A stretch of DNA of 33,829 nt from Akkermansiaceae bacterium (lineage in GTDB: Bacteria > Verrucomicrobiota > Verrucomicrobiia > Verrucomicrobiales > Akkermansiaceae). Both the position numbers and the translations under genes were made by a program. The notes beneath the pieces are model-generated. The model worked only from the letters and a program-made list of their open reading frames with translations, made no database searches and had not been told where the DNA came from. Position 1 is the first letter of the stretch. Each line of letters begins with the position of its first letter. The stretch lies in the NCBI GenBank assembly GCA_903919975.1, contig CAIXKE010000079.1, positions 1 to 33,829 on the forward strand. Reading direction: 5' to 3'. Of this stretch, positions 694 to 11,045 are shown one piece after another.

Positions 694-2580
694 ATGAAAC
701 CCTTGGATGAGGAGGCATGGCCACACATAATCCGGCCGGGAAGCCGGATTTTCATTGGCGGCGGAGCATCGGTGCCCTTCGCACTGGTGCATTCGATGTT
801 GCGGCAGGCTGACCATTTCAAGGATATAGAACTCGTTCACATCCACGGCCTCGGTGAAACCCCGTGGATCGATCCCAAATACGCCGATGTCCTGCGCACG
901 AATTCGTTTTTTTTAACACCCGCCCTGCGTGAGGCGGTGGAACGTGGGCAAGCCGACTACACCCCCTGCCCGATGTCCGAGGTGGCCTCGCTTTTTGAAA
1001 ATGGCCCATTACCGTTAGACGTGGCGTTGATTCAAGTCAGCCCGCCCGATGCCGATGGCTGGTGTTCGCTCGGTGTGAGCGTGGATGTGGTGAAACCCGC
1101 CGCACGCCTGGCTCGAACGGTGATCGCACAGATCAACACCAAGATGCCGCTAACCTGCGGCGACTCCCGGATTTCCACCCGCCAAATCGATTTTTTCATC
1201 GAACACAGCGCCGCTTTGCCGGAATTGCCACGAGCGATTTTAGACAAACGCCACGAACGGATCGGCCGCTACGCCGCGCAACTCATCGAAGACGGATCCA
1301 CCATCCAAATCGGCCTTGGAAACACTCCGGAAGCCGTGGCTCAAGCGTTGATCAAACATCAGCATCTGGGAATTCACACGGGCTTGTTCAATGACGCGTT
1401 GATGGAATTGGTCAGCTGCGGAGCCGTCGACTCGTCACGGAAAAACCTCTATCCAGGGAAAATCATCGCCAGCCACGTGATGGGCAGCCGCAAGCTCTAT
1501 CAGTTTGTCGATGACAACACCGATATCGAATTTCATCCCAGCGATTGGGTGAACGATCCGGGCCGCATCTCACGGAACGACCGCATGGTCGCAATCAACG
1601 GCGCACGTGAAATCGATCTAACCGGTCAAGTCGTGCGCGATTCGAGCGGTCATCAATTTTACGGCGGTATCGGAGCGCTGCAGGATTTCATCCGCGGCGC
1701 GGGCCGCAGCAAGGACGGACGGCCGATCATTGCCCTCACTTCCACCACCGATGATGGCGCGCATTCACGGATCGTTGCGGGACTGGAAGAAGGCAGCGGA
1801 GTCTGCACCGGGCGCGGCGACGTGCATTACGTGGTCACCGAGTTCGGCGTTGCCAGTCTCCACGGCCGCAGCATCCGCGAGCGGGTCGCCAGATTGGTGG
1901 AAATCGCCCACCCGGATCACCGCGAGAGCCTGCTGGCCGGGGCGCGAGCTCGCGGTTGGCTGCCGAAGTTTTTCACCATGCCTGCCACCCAGCCCGAATT
2001 TGCCGAAGGCGGAGTGGAAAGCTCCTGGGTGCTATTTCAGGAGCTGCGTTTCCTGGTGCGGCCGCTCCATCCGAGCGACATGCGGACTTTGCAGGAGTTT
2101 TTCTATTCCCACGACGAGCAAACCGTCCGCCTGCGTTATGGCTATCAGCGGGACAGCATGAGCGGTGAGTCCGCTTACAAGCTCGCGGCTGTGGACCAAC
2201 GCAAAGATTTGGCTCTGGGTATTTTTGAGGAAATCCATGGCCGCCAGGAACTCCGAGCCATCGCCAGGTATTATCTGGAGGAAGACGGAAAATGCGCCGA
2301 AGTCGCCTTCGTCGTGCATGAAGCCACCCGTCACCTCGGCATGGCCGGATATTTGTTAGGTGAGCTCGCCTCTATCGCCAAATTTCGCGGAATTACTTAC
2401 TTCTGGGCGAGCGTGCTGCCGGATAACCGCGCCATGGCCGGATTATTCCTTGCCGCAGGCGGTGCGGAAGCGAAATCATCGCGGGATGATGAACGCATCT
2501 TTAAAATGCCCGTGGAAAAAATCCTGCGCACTCGGAAGAAATTTCTCGCACGCAAAAACATCCAACGCCTTGAACGATGA
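694..2580 (+). CDS. acetyl-CoA hydrolase/CoA-transferase domain fused to GNAT acetyltransferase
   Basis: A 628-residue two-domain protein. Residues about 1-435 match the acetyl-CoA hydrolase / 4-hydroxybutyrate CoA-transferase family, with the GGIG...DFIRGA segment at 324-335 and VVTEFGVASLHGRS near 390. Residues about 452-610 form a GNAT domain resembling that of Pat-type lysine acetyltransferases, with the acetyl-CoA loop RHLGMAG at 546-552 and VLPDNRAM further on. In the 4-hydroxybutyrate CoA-transferase group the catalytic Glu lies in an H-T-E-M-type motif; here the matching stretch reads HTGLF with Gly230. The CoA domain may therefore bind rather than turn over acyl-CoA. The stop overlaps the start of the downstream deacetylase gene by 4 bases, so the two are surely co-translated. 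Inference: a lysine acetyltransferase with an acyl-CoA-sensing domain. A true CoA-transferase remains possible. The ATG start has no Shine-Dalgarno. Confidence 0.9.
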   Translation: MKPLDEEAWPHIIRPGSRIFIGGGASVPFALVHSMLRQADHFKDIELVHIHGLGETPWIDPKYADVLRTNSFFLTPALREAVERGQADYTPCPMSEVASLFENGPLPLDVALIQVSPPDADGWCSLGVSVDVVKPAARLARTVIAQINTKMPLTCGDSRISTRQIDFFIEHSAALPELPRAILDKRHERIGRYAAQLIEDGSTIQIGLGNTPEAVAQALIKHQHLGIHTGLFNDALMELVSCGAVDSSRKNLYPGKIIASHVMGSRKLYQFVDDNTDIEFHPSDWVNDPGRISRNDRMVAINGAREIDLTGQVVRDSSGHQFYGGIGALQDFIRGAGRSKDGRPIIALTSTTDDGAHSRIVAGLEEGSGVCTGRGDVHYVVTEFGVASLHGRSIRERVARLVEIAHPDHRESLLAGARARGWLPKFFTMPATQPEFAEGGVESSWVLFQELRFLVRPLHPSDMRTLQEFFYSHDEQTVRLRYGYQRDSMSGESAYKLAAVDQRKDLALGIFEEIHGRQELRAIARYYLEEDGKCAEVAFVVHEATRHLGMAGYLLGELASIAKFRGITYFWASVLPDNRAMAGLFLAAGGAEAKSSRDDERIFKMPVEKILRTRKKFLARKNIQRLER

Positions 2581-3521
2581 GCGCTGAGAAACGATCGGTC
2601 GGCATTCATTTCGATGCGACATACGAAAAACACGACACCGGACCGCACCATCCGGAGTCCGCGGAGCGCTACCGGGTTCTTGAATCGGCACTGCAAGAAC
2701 TGCCAGAAAATTTCCTGAGACTGCCCGGTCGGCGGGCTACGGTTTCCGAGATCTTACTGGCTCATGAACATTATTATCATGATCTGGTCTATCGGGATGT
2801 GGAGTCATTCGCCCACCAGCTGCGCACGGGCGACACGGCGATCTGCGAAGAAAGCTACGATGTCACACTGGAGGCGAGCGGTGCCGTTCTTGCCGCAGTG
2901 GATGCAGTGATGGCGGACAAAGTTTTCTCAGCCTTCTGCGCGGTGCGACCGCCCGGCCACCACGCCACGGCGACCCGCGGCATGGGGTTCTGCATTTTCA
3001 ACCATGTCGCCATCGCCGCGCGCTACCTCCAAAAAAAGCATGGTCTGCAACGTGTGGCGATCATCGATTGGGACGTTCATCACGGCAACGGCACCGAAGC
3101 GATCTTCATCGAAGATCCCTCCGTGTTCTACCTATCCCTCCACGAGAATGATATCTATCCGCACACCGGTCCCGCCACCGAAAGAGGACAAGGCAAAGGC
3201 CTCGGCGCGAACCTGAATATTCCCCTGCCCGGCGCTTCGGACGGCACCCTCGCGCTTGCAGCATGGGATGCACAAATCACTCCGGCTATTGATGCGTTTC
3301 AACCGGATTTCCTGCTGATCTCCGCCGGCTTCGACGCGCGCATCAACGATCCGATCGGCGGCCTGCACTGGTCCGACGCCACCTTCGCCGCGATGACCCG
3401 CCGCTGCGTCGAGTTGGCTGAAAAATGGTGCGGCGGCAAAATCGTCTCCGTGCTCGAAGGCGGCTACAATCCCGCGGGCCTTGCCTCGGCGGCGCTGGCA
3501 CACGTGAACGCCCTTGTTTGA
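2577..3521 (+). CDS. histone deacetylase/AcuC-like family deacetylase
   Basis: A 314-residue zinc deacetylase of the arginase-like HDAC fold, about the normal length for bacterial class II-like members. Visible elements are HPESAERY near the N terminus, the charge-relay pair in RPPGHHA (H128, H129), zinc ligands D166 and H168 in DWDVHHGNGT, D253 in GFDA, and the transition-state Tyr297 in EGGYN. All catalytic residues are present, so it should be active. Bacterial relatives remove acetyl groups from lysines (AcuC on acetyl-CoA synthetase) or from small amines (acetylpolyamine amidohydrolases). It overlaps the GNAT-fusion gene by 4 bases (ATGA), which favours protein deacetylation opposite that acetyltransferase. 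The substrate itself cannot be read from the sequence. Confidence 0.92.
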   Translation: MSAEKRSVGIHFDATYEKHDTGPHHPESAERYRVLESALQELPENFLRLPGRRATVSEILLAHEHYYHDLVYRDVESFAHQLRTGDTAICEESYDVTLEASGAVLAAVDAVMADKVFSAFCAVRPPGHHATATRGMGFCIFNHVAIAARYLQKKHGLQRVAIIDWDVHHGNGTEAIFIEDPSVFYLSLHENDIYPHTGPATERGQGKGLGANLNIPLPGASDGTLALAAWDAQITPAIDAFQPDFLLISAGFDARINDPIGGLHWSDATFAAMTRRCVELAEKWCGGKIVSVLEGGYNPAGLASAALAHVNALV

Positions 3522-3532
3522 AACACCACCGC

Positions 3533-3703
3533 TCAATCCGCCATACCCCGGGCATAGACATCATCCTCGGTGAAAACGATCACCATCGGCCGACAGCAAA
3601 CCTCGCAATCATAATCCACCTCCGCAGGCATCTCGTCCGGATGCGGCACGGCGACTTCAAAGACCTCAAAACACGTCGGGCAAGTGACTTCAGCAAGTTC
3701 CAT
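3533..3703 (-). CDS. CPXCG-motif cysteine-rich small protein
   Basis: A 56-residue protein with a CPTC pair at residues 8-11 and a CEVCCRP cluster at 33-39, joined by an acidic linker. This is the pattern of the small CPXCG cysteine-rich family, thought to bind zinc as a ribbon. The ATG at 3703 is chosen over longer starts because it places the first CPxC at residue 8, as in relatives, and because upstream translation is unlike coding sequence. It lies 38 bases downstream of the exported-protein gene on the same strand and converges with the deacetylase gene (11-base gap). Its function is unknown. Confidence 0.75.
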   Translation of the reverse strand: MELAEVTCPTCFEVFEVAVPHPDEMPAEVDYDCEVCCRPMVIVFTEDDVYARGMAD

Positions 3704-3741
3704 AGTCGGAGAATTGCACGGCGACCGAGAGATTTCCAGCC

Positions 3742-4587
3742 TCACTTCACTTGCAAGCTGAGACGGGATTTTCCGGTTGGATCCTTGGCGGCATCCACCA
3801 CCCAATTGACGGTGAATCCCTCGTGAAGCGGCGCGGGCGTATCATTCCACAAAGTGATCGCCGAGTTTTCAGTCGCGGCGAACCGGAGTTTCTTGCCATT
3901 GTAGTAATTGATTTCGGCCTCGGCGTTGACAATGCCCGGGCCGTTGATCTCCTTGGAAGTCACATCCACGCGGTCGGTGAAATTTTGCTTGAGGCGCTTT
4001 CCATCCGACCATTTCAGATCCACTCGGTCGTCTTTGATCCTTTTTTCGAAGGCTTTCTGCGCCATCCGACCTTCTTTTTCCACATCGGCATAAACATTCG
4101 GAACTTTCACACGAACGGTGAAACGAAGCGGGTCTTTCGTCAGAGTCCCCGTGTCGGTGATGCGACCACCGATGAAAATGTCACCTCGTTCTTGTTCGAT
4201 GGTCACTTCATAAGCGGCGTCTCCGGTGACCTTGCCATGAAAGGTGATTTTGCCGAGCTTATCGGTCGCCGGGTCGGTGGATTCCAACGAGCCCTTCTTG
4301 ATTTTTTTGAGCCGGGCCTCCCCGTTAGGTAGGATTTCCTCAACCACGAAGGAGACCGCGATTTCAGTCGCCTCCCCCATCGGCTCGCCCTTGGGATTCA
4401 TCAGGGTAAGGGTAGCCGCCCCATTGGTGTCGACGCTGAACTGGTAGTACCGACTTTCAAACACCGCGAAATAACCCATCCAAGGTTGCTTTTTCAGAAT
4501 GGGAAGCTCTGCGGACGCGCGTTGAAAACCGATGAAACTGAGAAAAAAAGCAGCCTTAACAGCCACCAACCATGGTTGATACTTCAT
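3742..4587 (-). CDS. exported protein of unknown function
   Basis: A 281-residue protein with a typical Sec signal peptide: Lys near the start, a hydrophobic core at about residues 7-21, and an A-S-A cleavage site before Glu27. The mature part is rich in beta-type sequence, with many Thr/Val/Lys alternations and charged residues, and has no Cys. It is probably a periplasmic beta protein. I recognise no domain and no catalytic motif. The gene is followed by the CPXCG gene in the same direction and lies 55 bases after the M42 peptidase gene upstream. Likely a lineage-specific envelope protein. Confidence 0.7.
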   Translation of the reverse strand: MKYQPWLVAVKAAFFLSFIGFQRASAELPILKKQPWMGYFAVFESRYYQFSVDTNGAATLTLMNPKGEPMGEATEIAVSFVVEEILPNGEARLKKIKKGSLESTDPATDKLGKITFHGKVTGDAAYEVTIEQERGDIFIGGRITDTGTLTKDPLRFTVRVKVPNVYADVEKEGRMAQKAFEKRIKDDRVDLKWSDGKRLKQNFTDRVDVTSKEINGPGIVNAEAEINYYNGKKLRFAATENSAITLWNDTPAPLHEGFTVNWVVDAAKDPTGKSRLSLQVK

Positions 4588-5883: not shown

Positions 5884-6183
5884 TCACGGACCCAGACGCT
5901 CCCGGATCCACTCGGGATTCCGCCGACAATCAGTCACAGCCCAGACCACAACCTCATCACCGTCGATTGTGTAATAGATCGCGTAAGGAAACACCCGGCT
6001 GAGCAAACGATGGTAATCCCGGTAATTCCTCCGGTGGATGCCACCGGTAACCTTCAATCCTTCTATGTCCGCTCGGAGACAGGCGGAGAAATATTCGCCC
6101 AATCCTGATTCTTGGGATTCATAGAACCAGAAACCATCAGTCAAATCCTCCAGGGCATCCTCCGAGACGCGAATTCTGATCAT
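5884..6183 (-). CDS. RelE/ParE-family toxin
   Basis: A 99-residue protein of the RelE/ParE fold. It starts MIRIRVSEDALEDL and contains the family's typical aromatic strand (RVFPYAIYYTIDGDEVVVWAV) and an Arg-rich C terminus (DCRRNPEWIRERL). The ATG at 6183 overlaps the antitoxin stop by 4 bases and is preferred over the upstream alternative start because it removes a non-family extension. Relatives either cleave mRNA on the ribosome or poison gyrase; the sequence alone does not decide which. The pair sits between the M42 peptidase and dnaE, with dnaE on the opposite strand. Confidence 0.85.
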   Translation of the reverse strand: MIRIRVSEDALEDLTDGFWFYESQESGLGEYFSACLRADIEGLKVTGGIHRRNYRDYHRLLSRVFPYAIYYTIDGDEVVVWAVTDCRRNPEWIRERLGP

Positions 6184-6389
6184 TTCCCGCCAATTGAGTG
6201 TTTCACCGCATCCCAATCCCGAAGCACTGCTTTTCCAGTGGCGGCTCTCTCCCTACGCGAATCCAGAAGTTCCCGATGTTCTTGAGGAACCTCGAAGCGA
6301 TCTGCTTGCCCACGCAAATCCTCCCAAATCGCTTCCATGATCTGGAGTTTTTCTCTGAGCGGCAACTTGGAGATTTCAGCGAGACTCAT
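6180..6389 (-). CDS. addiction-module antitoxin (TIGR02574-type)
   Basis: A 69-residue antitoxin of the 'putative addiction module component' type (Unstab_antitox family). Diagnostic features are the N-terminal EISKLPLREKLQIMEAIWEDL helix and the later E-L-L-D-x-R segment, which wraps the toxin. It is the first gene of the two and its stop is contained in the toxin's ATGA start, the usual arrangement for coupled synthesis. The promoter should lie between 6390 and 6548, facing away from dnaE, and autoregulation is expected from the family. No operator repeat was obvious. Confidence 0.85.
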   Translation of the reverse strand: MSLAEISKLPLREKLQIMEAIWEDLRGQADRFEVPQEHRELLDSRRERAATGKAVLRDWDAVKHSIGGK

Positions 6390-10144: not shown

Positions 10145-10750
10145 TTATTCGGAGTGCGTCCGACAGACGGAGCGGATGATTTTGGGACGATCCATCAAGT
10201 CCTGGATCGACTGGACGAGCTTATCGCTGAGGTCTTTACTTTGTTTGGTGAAGTAGCCAGCTAGATAGTTCCCTTTCAGGTGCTGCCAAAGCCGCTCGAT
10301 CGGGTTGAAGTCGGGGCTGTAGGATGGGAGATAGTCCGGCTCGATGTGATGCCAATGCAGGCTTTTGGTTTTATGCCAACTGGCGTTTTCCAGCACGAGC
10401 AGCACGCCTTTGCCACGACGTCTTGGGGCCTCCGCTGCCATCGCATCGAGGAAGATCTGGACCCCCCCGTATCGCAATGGGGGACGATCTGGCTCACCAG
10501 CTGGCCGGTCGAAGGATTGACCGCCCCGATGACGTTCTGCCGAACATGGCTTCGCCTGATAGGCCTGGGTCGGACGCGAGCCTCCTTTGACCCCTTTGTG
10601 CCGCGGCCGCGGATTGCCTTCAAACCCGGCCTCATCGCCAAAGAAAACCTCGCAGGCAGGACTCTCCAAGAGTTCCAGGAGCTCGAAGGCGAAGGCCTCG
10701 CGCGCGAAAGTCTTCCTAAGCTTCGCGATCCGGAGGCTCCGGTGCGAGGC
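10145..10750 (-). pseudogene. IS630-family transposase, truncated and frameshifted
   Basis: The catalytic part of an IS630 (Tc1/mariner-like DDE) transposase: GDEAGFEGNPRPR, then RQNVIGAVNPSTGQLVS, IVPHCDT, ASWHKTKSLHWHHIEP, and LPSYSPDFNPIERLW. The N-terminal helix-turn-helix half is missing. The frame is broken twice: near 10546-10570 and at a run of seven C at 10462-10468 (G on the coding strand), where it returns to the first frame. The second catalytic Asp position reads Glu (LENASWHK instead of the usual LDNASWHK). The element should be inactive. No terminal inverted repeats could be matched by eye. Its 5' edge is fused to the stump of an exported-protein gene. Confidence 0.85.
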
Positions 10751-11045
10751 GGGTGAGCGCTGCGGGCGCGGTTCCCGGATCGAGCAACTCGGGCGCGGTG
10801 GCACCCAGATCCTGTGCGATCCATACTGCGGCGATCGGTTCTTCGCGGGCAAATGCGAGCCATTTTTCATCACGGGATTTGATCCGTGCATTGGCGTTCA
10901 CCTTGCTGGAGGCAACCGTTTGCAGCTCTGAGATCCGATTTTTTTTAACATCAGCCACGGGCCCGGCGGCGGCGAAAAAAACGCCGAGGGACGCCACGCA
11001 CAAAACTGCAGAGGCGTAATGAAAAAGGATGGCAGGGATTCGCAT
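10740..11045 (-). pseudogene. exported protein stump truncated by the IS630 remnant
   Basis: The frame opens with a good signal peptide (MRIPAILFHYASAVLCVASL, then an A-A-A-G region), followed by a charged helix and the segment WLAFAREEPIAAVWIAQDLG. It then enters the IS630-derived sequence near 10740 and soon stops. It lies 33 bases downstream of the sulfatase gene in the same direction, so it was probably the second gene of that operon before the insertion removed its C-terminal part. I recognise no domain in what is left. Confidence 0.5.

What the first reader, a model, noticed from the sequence alone, without database searches (positions are those of the whole stretch)
694..3521. Overlapping operon of CoA-transferase/GNAT fusion and HDAC-type deacetylase: a candidate self-contained protein-acetylation switch
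The sequence shows a CoA-transferase-like domain fused to a Pat-like GNAT, then, overlapping by 4 bases, a deacetylase with all catalytic residues. Established parallels are Pat, where a dead NDP-forming acyl-CoA synthetase-like domain is fused to a GNAT, and Bacillus AcuA/AcuC, where an acetyltransferase and deacetylase control acetyl-CoA synthetase. This module would be the same logic built from a different CoA-binding domain. Inference: the N-terminal domain senses acyl-CoA and tunes lysine acetylation, reversed by the partner.
Basis: partly seen in the sequence, partly recalled or inferred. Interest (0 to 1): 0.75.

Follow-up and report, generated by a model that had tools for sequence, protein, structure and literature searches.

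The report
Acetylation switch with disabled CoA-transferase sensor
Two overlapping bacterial genes, which in some relatives form one long gene, look like an enzyme that puts acetyl marks on proteins and its matching eraser, tied to a metabolic enzyme that has lost its catalytic residue and may now act as a sensor; acetate metabolism is the likely but unproven target.

Summary
In detail: window 694-2580 encodes a 628-aa CoA-transferase/GNAT fusion and 2577-3521 a complete class-II-like deacetylase, overlapping in ATGA. All 57 non-identical fusions of this clade have Gly there; all 28 other fusions and 10 standalone enzymes sampled have Glu; it changed once on the tree, and the domain stays conserved. 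In the 57, the deacetylase is adjacent (35), in one ~950-aa open frame (17), or elsewhere in the genome (5). Two genomes lack the CoA-transferase domain but keep GNAT plus deacetylase with the same 4-base overlap. Most loci share no neighbour, but in four genomes the module or its relocated deacetylase lies next to, or one gene from, ackA-pta or acs, and in a fifth next to an acyl-CoA synthetase. Best reading: a reversible lysine-acetylation module for acetate/acyl-CoA activation enzymes, with a Glu-less CoA-transferase as (acyl-)CoA-responsive regulatory domain, like Pat but built from a different disabled CoA enzyme and with its eraser attached. Protein substrate, target and CoA sensing are inferred. 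Ten searches of open PMC found no description.

The parts
694..2580 (+). CoA-transferase/GNAT fusion, 628 aa
   Evidence: ORF, Pfam; Met1 invariant in 17 aligned sequences, the query included
727..1944 (+). Glu-less 4-hydroxybutyrate CoA-transferase-like domain (about residues 12-417)
   Evidence: PDB matches 9vag 8.7e-122, 3eh7, 2oas, 3d3u, 3gk7; PF02550/PF13336
1381..1383 (+). Gly230 codon at the position of the catalytic Glu (3gk7 E238)
   Evidence: Alignment to 3gk7; Gly in 57/57 clade rows, Glu in 28/28 other fusions and 10/10 standalone CoA-transferases
1636..1638 (+). Arg315 codon, invariant in the clade (mostly Ala where the Glu is kept)
   Evidence: 57/57 Arg; Ala in 24/28 other fusions and 10/10 standalone
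1678..1680 (+). Leu329 codon at the position of the CoA-contacting Gln337 of 3gk7
   Evidence: Gln kept in 7/57 clade rows, 24/28 other fusions, 10/10 standalone; contact from passages of PMC11659651, alignment
2041..2511 (+). Pat-like GNAT domain (about residues 450-606)
   Evidence: NCBIfam ActPatMycb56 44 bits, far below its cut-off of 460
2299..2301 (+). Glu536 codon, aligned with the proposed general base E235 of mycobacterial Pat (4ava)
   Evidence: Alignment; Glu in 85/85 fusions
2577..2580 (+). ATGA stop/start overlap
   Evidence: Sequence; two CoAT-less pairs have a 4-base overlap too
2577..3521 (+). class-II-like Zn-dependent deacetylase, 314 aa
   Evidence: PF00850; catalytic residues; RPPGHH 124-129 and EGGY 294-297

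Best explanation
The two genes form a self-contained reversible acetylation module. The C-terminal GNAT of the fusion is the writer (probably lysine side chains of one or a few enzymes of acetate/acyl-CoA activation, such as Acs), the translationally coupled class-II-like enzyme is the eraser, and the N-terminal domain is a former 4-hydroxybutyrate-type CoA-transferase that has lost its catalytic glutamate and now serves as a regulatory domain, most likely binding CoA or acyl-CoA without turning it over and so setting writer (and, where fused, perhaps eraser) activity. Shown: architecture, loss of the Glu, retained writer and eraser motifs, co-inheritance, repeated joining or splitting of the genes, absence of the CoA-transferase domain in two genomes, and ackA-pta/acs beside module genes in a minority. 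Inferred: protein as substrate, target, ligand binding, direction of regulation.
For: E to G at the catalytic site in 57/57 clade rows against 0/38 others, one change on the tree. The domain remains conserved: 117 of 404 columns at 95% or more. GNAT Glu536 in 85/85 fusions. Eraser catalytic residues, RPPGHH and EGGY kept in every clade sequence that covers them. 17 of 57 rows are single-ORF CoAT-GNAT-HDAC, in separate branches. Eraser and fusion trees of 56 loci share 39 of 53 splits; 200 label shuffles give at most 2. Five genomes with unlinked genes keep the orthologous eraser. Two CoAT-less pairs keep GNAT and eraser. ackA-pta lies divergently beside the triple gene in G277 and G528; the eraser lies beside pta-ackA in G525; in G563 the order is acs, a 291-aa gene, eraser, with pta one gene further; in G595 an AMP-binding acyl-CoA synthetase follows the eraser 18 bases on. 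Long Pta occurs in 20 of 56 module genomes, and in 4 of the 20 lies within about 2.1 kb of a module gene. The own Acs has the PKTRSGK motif. AarC E294A is described as inactive and was crystallised closed with CoA and an acetyl-CoA analogue (passages of PMC4876117). Pat's acyl-CoA synthetase domain is dead but binds acetyl-CoA (passages of PMC8556138).
Against: No activity or binding data. ThnP, a family I CoA-transferase without the conserved Glu, is still an active intramolecular CoA-transferase, so loss of Glu does not prove loss of activity. Gln329, which contacts CoA in 3gk7, is also lost in 50/57, so CoA binding itself may be changed. Acetate genes lie near the module in only 5 of 69 searched loci (duplicates included); G277/G528 are near relatives on the tree, as are G525/G563, so there may be only two or three events; the window's own long pta and acs are on other contigs. 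Acs is in 41/41 genus genomes with or without the fusion (39 over the cut-off). G671 has the eraser with no fusion detected, and G623 an eraser nested among fused ones with no fusion match. Pairing with a deacetylase also occurs beside Glu-type fusions.
Confidence: 0.62

Rival explanations
1. Small-molecule acetylation/deacetylation cycle: the GNAT acetylates a metabolite (polyamine, amino sugar or other amine) and the HDAC-fold enzyme removes the acetyl group.
For: HDAC-fold enzymes include polyamine deacetylases, and RPPGHH/EGGY also occur in a bacterial polyamine deacetylase (passages of PMC11532494).
Against: The GNAT's best solved relatives are mostly protein acetyltransferases. The gate motif is PIG/PLG/PVG/PLA/PMA, not the PEG of HDAC10 or the PIS of bacterial ApaH. 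The best PDB matches of the eraser are HDAC6- and HdaH-type. Acetate/acyl-CoA genes beside some modules fit enzyme targets better.
Confidence: 0.13
2. The Glu-less domain is only a structural or oligomerisation scaffold and binds no ligand; writer and eraser are otherwise as in the best explanation.
For: The CoA-contacting Gln329 is lost in 50/57; two genomes lack the domain.
Against: High conservation of the domain with an invariant new Arg315 and retained Q205, R334 and R374 (57/57 each) suggests a kept pocket rather than a bare scaffold.
Confidence: 0.17
3. The CoA-transferase domain is still an enzyme by another route (for example intramolecular transfer or hydrolysis), making a bifunctional enzyme.
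For: ThnP lacks the conserved Glu yet is active (passages of PMC11659651).
Against: Glu is replaced by Gly in all 57, with three more near-fixed changes in the domain; AarC E294A is described as inactive.
Confidence: 0.06
4. Accidental neighbours with no joint function.
Against: 17 single-ORF rows, congruent trees, retention when unlinked, no other widely shared neighbour.
Confidence: 0.02

Closest known systems
Type I/II bacterial protein acetyltransferases (Pat/PatZ/YfiQ, SlPatA)
   Same: A catalytically disabled CoA-handling enzyme domain joined to a GNAT with the Glu base and R/QxxGxG/A motif.
   Different: The disabled domain is a family I CoA-transferase, not an NDP-forming acyl-CoA synthetase, and the eraser is co-encoded or fused.
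Bacillus AcuA/AcuB/AcuC
   Same: Acetyltransferase and Zn deacetylase in one operon (abstract of PMC13121692); in G563 the deacetylase lies in the acs neighbourhood.
   Different: No acsA beside the window pair and no AcuB recognised there (AcuB itself was not searched for); eraser nearest class II enzymes; the writer carries its regulatory domain in cis.
Type III KATs (cAMP-, ACT- or NADP-binding domain + GNAT)
   Same: N-terminal regulatory domain followed by GNAT.
   Different: None of the types in the review passages that I read has a CoA-transferase domain.
4-Hydroxybutyrate / Cat1-type CoA-transferases
   Same: Sequence matches of 1e-88 to 1e-122 to solved structures.
   Different: Catalytic Glu is Gly; GGQ loop changed; fused to a GNAT.
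Class II / cluster 1 Zn-dependent deacetylases (HDAC6, HdaH)
   Same: All catalytic residues, RPPGHH and EGGY.
   Different: Translationally coupled or fused to a CoAT-GNAT.

Membership tests
[quoted passage not shown]
   Pfam finds CoA-transferase domains and no acyl-CoA synthetase domain
Pat-type (type I/II) lysine acetyltransferase | GNAT with proposed Glu base and R/QxxGxG/A motif | tested here: met
   E536 aligns with 4ava E235 and is kept in 85/85; R546, G549, A551 in the query
Pat-type (type I/II) lysine acetyltransferase | Acetylates protein lysine (e.g. Acs) | not testable with these tools
   Own Acs has the PKTRSGK motif, but no assay
AcuABC system | acsA beside the pair | tested here: not met
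   No Acs match in the window; among the loci searched only beside the relocated eraser of G563; own acs is on another contig
AcuABC system | AcuB regulator in the operon | not tested
   No AcuB-like gene was noticed among the window neighbours given to Pfam, but AcuB was not searched for
AcuABC system | AcuC-like (class I, cluster 2) deacetylase | tested here: not met
   Best 60 solved matches are HDAC6, HdaH, HDAC4/7/10/15, HDA1 and amidohydrolases, none named as class I HDAC; no AcuC sequence was compared directly
Family I CoA-transferase (4HBT/Cat1) | CoA-transferase sequence over its whole length | tested here: met
   (by sequence; the AlphaFold model was poor)
Family I CoA-transferase (4HBT/Cat1) | Catalytic Glu | tested here: not met
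   Gly230 in the query and in 57/57 clade rows
Cluster 1 / class II Zn deacetylase | HH dyad, Asp-His-Asp Zn ligands, catalytic Tyr, RPPxHH and EGGY | tested here: met
Cluster 1 / class II Zn deacetylase | Deacetylates lysine | not testable with these tools
   Motif-based expectation only

The most novel reading that the evidence does not exclude
A new type of bacterial acetylation switch in which a disabled CoA-transferase sensor, a lysine acetyltransferase and its own deacetylase form one unit, in 17 of 57 sampled rows one polypeptide, so that opposing writer and eraser of acetate-activating enzymes are governed by one (acyl-)CoA-sensing domain: an independent re-invention of Pat's dead-enzyme sensor with the eraser built in.
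Probability: 0.43. Interest if true: 0.75.

Novelty: new variant of a known kind. Interest (0 to 1): 0.62.

Why it matters
How bacteria keep opposing acetyltransferases and deacetylases from cycling uselessly, and how acyl-CoA level is read by acetyltransferases, are not settled. A natural sensor-writer-eraser polypeptide, with relatives that still carry the intact CoA-transferase active site, others that dropped the domain, and some that sit beside ackA-pta or acs, gives a ready comparative series for testing this. If true it adds a new regulatory domain to the type I-V classification of bacterial lysine acetyltransferases.

Tried and rejected
AlphaFold2 of the fusion with 17 sequences gave mean pLDDT 57.1 and pTM 0.38, too poor for the CoA-transferase domain; no fold search was run, and the place of Arg315 relative to the pocket was not measured. 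Acs co-occurrence (41/41) and SIR2 co-occurrence (7/21 with the fusion, 6/20 without) do not discriminate. Plasmids: of 69 matching PLSDB records none covered 80% of the query. PADLOC: no match for four window proteins. Promoter/terminator scan: 2 and 7 sites against means of 1.9 and 4.7 in shuffles. Outside Verrucomicrobiota I have only one pattern scan of genome contigs, which reaches close relatives (17 loci, all with Verrucomicrobiota titles). The ten paper searches found no paper on this fusion; they cover open-licence PMC only.

Two early conclusions were corrected. From 20 listed negatives I took the within-genus eraser/fusion association as exceptionless; one search showed three further fusion-negative genomes with the eraser, which I examined. 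Because of that second correction I raised the best explanation from 0.55 to 0.62, the novel case from 0.40 to 0.43 and interest from 0.60 to 0.62, and lowered the rivals (small molecule 0.20 to 0.13, scaffold 0.20 to 0.17, other enzyme 0.08 to 0.06).

One search aligned a wrong ORF; repeated correctly.
Full report
OBSERVATION. Pfam gives acetyl-CoA hydrolase/transferase N- and C-domains and a GNAT in the first, and a whole-length Hist_deacetyl in the second. Closest solved structures for the first are 4-hydroxybutyrate CoA-transferases (9vag, 3eh7, 2oas, 3d3u, 3gk7); for the GNAT part mostly protein acetyltransferases; for the second HDAC6 and bacterial HdaH-type enzymes (138 sequences matched, best 60 shown).

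THE MISSED POINT. Aligned to 3gk7, whose catalytic residue is E238 (named in passages of PMC11659651), the query has Gly230. Of 113 loci, 18 were left out before counting (12 identical copies, 5 partial, and the own genome's distant Ach1-type protein). In the 95 rows left, Gly is found in all 57 members of the query's clade, Glu in all 28 other CoAT-GNAT fusions and all 10 standalone CoA-transferases. The 57 form one clade (SH-aLRT 100, quick tree) and the residue changes once. Columns at least 90% one residue in the clade and at least 80% another in the 28: only G230 (57/57), R315 (57/57; Ala 24/28), G324 (57/57; Ser 25/28) and S368 (52/57; Ala 24/28). Gln337 of 3gk7, which contacts CoA, corresponds to residue 329; Gln is kept in 7/57, 24/28 and 10/10. 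Yet 117 of 404 CoA-transferase columns are at least 95% conserved in the clade. This fits a pseudo-enzyme kept for binding or regulation. Caution: ThnP lacks the conserved Glu but is an active intramolecular CoA-transferase.

WRITER AND ERASER ARE INTACT. GNAT Glu536, aligned to the proposed base E235 of mycobacterial Pat, is present in 85/85 fusions. The deacetylase has its catalytic residues in every clade member whose alignment covers them. Among 61 distinct sequences at 45% identity or more, RPPGHH is found in 59 and EGGY in 58, the others not being covered. According to PMC11532494 (passages and section 6 read) these motifs mark robust deacetylases, but also a polyamine deacetylase. The gate motif is PIG, PLG, PVG, PLA or PMA, not PEG or PIS.

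ONE UNIT. Among the 57 rows the deacetylase follows directly in 35, is in the same open frame in 17 (920-992 aa, stop to stop), and is not adjacent in 5. In the directly following cases its match starts between -9 and +45 bases from the end of the fusion gene (45 loci, duplicates included). The five genomes without adjacency all hold an orthologous deacetylase; in G525 it lies only about 2 kb downstream. The single-ORF rows fall in separate branches, so joining or splitting happened more than once; L024/L025, of another order of the class, nest beside L073 in both trees, so the pair seems to have moved together. Fusion and deacetylase trees for 56 loci (the 57th, L014, has its deacetylase cut by a contig end) share 39 of 53 splits; 200 label shuffles give at most 2. 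Linked inheritance alone would also give congruence.

DISTRIBUTION. In an even sample of 387 genomes of the phylum, 81 match at 1e-10; 9 of these hold full-length Gly-type and 27 Glu-type fusions. In 386 genomes of the order 60 match at 1e-60: 54 of the Gly clade (Gly read in 53; G681 lacks that part), one Glu-type fusion (G695), and five matched only over the CoA-transferase part. The deacetylase (E at most 1e-80) is in 53 of these 54 (G696, whose fusion is cut by a contig end, lacks it) and in 114 of the other 332. Within the genus, 21 of 21 fusion genomes and 0 of 20 listed negatives have a deacetylase at 60% identity or more; three other negatives, G652, G671 and G712, do have one.

A NATURAL DELETION. 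G652 and G712 lack the CoA-transferase domain: a 187-aa GNAT (51% identical to the query's GNAT) overlaps a 70-71% identical deacetylase by four bases. Their deacetylases lie inside the linked clade, so the domain was most likely lost. G671 has only the deacetylase, and G623 a deacetylase nested among fused ones with no fusion match. The core is therefore writer plus eraser; the CoA-transferase is removable.

GLU-TYPE FUSIONS. Of the 28, L034 and L035 have a directly following deacetylase (35-37% identity, RPPGHH/EGGY), L093 a downstream one of another kind (31%), and L033 one divergently upstream; the other 24 show none in the short flanks held (L094 ends at a contig end). All seven Glu-type genomes of families f10 and f12 tested have a deacetylase relative at 42-49% elsewhere. 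The association may thus be older than the loss of the Glu, or have arisen repeatedly; loss of the Glu is not needed for pairing.

SURROUNDINGS AND TARGET. In 18 loci (first 14 kb of the window, and L003-L019 with up to 8 kb of flank) the fusion and the deacetylase are the only gene families shared by four or more loci, apart from an ORF shadow on the opposite strand of the deacetylase. A direct search with five probes (own Acs; AMP-binding synthetase of G595; Pta and AckA of G525; the 291-aa gene beside acs) of 69 loci (duplicates included; they cover 56 of the 57 rows and the relocated deacetylases; flanks up to about 10 kb, shorter in several) found matches in five. G277 and G528: ackA-pta divergent from the triple-fusion gene. 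G525: deacetylase directly beside pta-ackA. G563: acs, the 291-aa gene and the deacetylase on one strand, pta one gene beyond. G595: an AMP-binding acyl-CoA synthetase 18 bases after the deacetylase. The own genome also has a 291-aa-like gene directly after acs, judged by eye from the printed starts. Pta of the long type (E at most 1e-114) occurs in 20 of 56 module genomes and lies within about 2.1 kb of a module gene in 4 of them; my rough estimate by chance is 0.04 genomes (about 9 kb of a 4.5-Mb genome, times 20). G277/G528 and G525/G563 are near relatives on the tree, so these may be two events. In the other 16, the window's genome included, long pta is not beside the module. Acs is in 41/41 genus genomes (39 over the cut-off) and the own copy has PKTRSGK. 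The own genome has no SIR2 match and two HDAC-family genes.

MECHANISM. AarC E294A is described as inactive and was crystallised fully closed with CoA and with a non-hydrolysable acetyl-CoA analogue (passages of PMC4876117); closure on ligand without chemistry is what a sensor needs. In Pat the dead acyl-CoA synthetase domain binds acetyl-CoA and affects GNAT activity (passages of PMC8556138). By analogy the Glu-less CoA-transferase would close on (acyl-)CoA and tune the GNAT. Direction, ligand and target are inference.

NOVELTY. The type I-V classification, in the review passages read, contains no CoA-transferase type. The main text of PMC11532494 has no occurrence of 'CoA-transferase' or 'Verrucomicrob'. 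Ten searches of open PMC found no description. From memory only: NCBI names CoA-hydrolase/transferase-GNAT fusions in other phyla, so the bare two-domain architecture is not new to databases; the Glu-less clade, the coupled or fused eraser and the CoAT-less pair are what I consider new. I file it as a new variant of a known kind.

Noticed in passing
G000:C13:21293-22081 (L122, L159): The own genome carries a second, distant HDAC-family gene (about 35% identity over its matched part, YGGY instead of EGGY), perhaps AcuC-like (a guess), with no fusion beside it.
   Followed up: partly
L172 4638-5513; L158 2406-3287: A conserved gene of about 290 aa without a Pfam match directly follows acs in G563 and apparently in the own genome.
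   Followed up: no
L128, L129, L130, L093: Glu-type CoAT-GNAT fusions in other lineages also sit next to HDAC-family genes, suggesting repeated or older pairing.
   Followed up: partly
L103 (G122): A separate GNAT-like ORF lies just upstream of a standalone Glu-type CoA-transferase, an unfused version of the architecture in another family.
   Followed up: no
L100 (G665:C89): The deacetylase is split over two frames on a short contig and the fusion lies in pieces on two contigs: broken gene or assembly error.
   Followed up: no
L149, L150 (G607, G631): A distinct 42% HDAC relative with an N-terminal signal-like stretch (by eye), possibly exported, in genomes without the fusion.
   Followed up: no
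window 5884-6216 (-): ParE-toxin-like protein (PF05016).
   Followed up: no
window 10145-10891 (-): DDE superfamily (PF13358) transposase-like ORF beside a sulfatase.
   Followed up: no
window 3533-3805 (-): Cysteine-rich CPXCG small protein (PF14255) directly downstream on the opposite strand.
   Followed up: no
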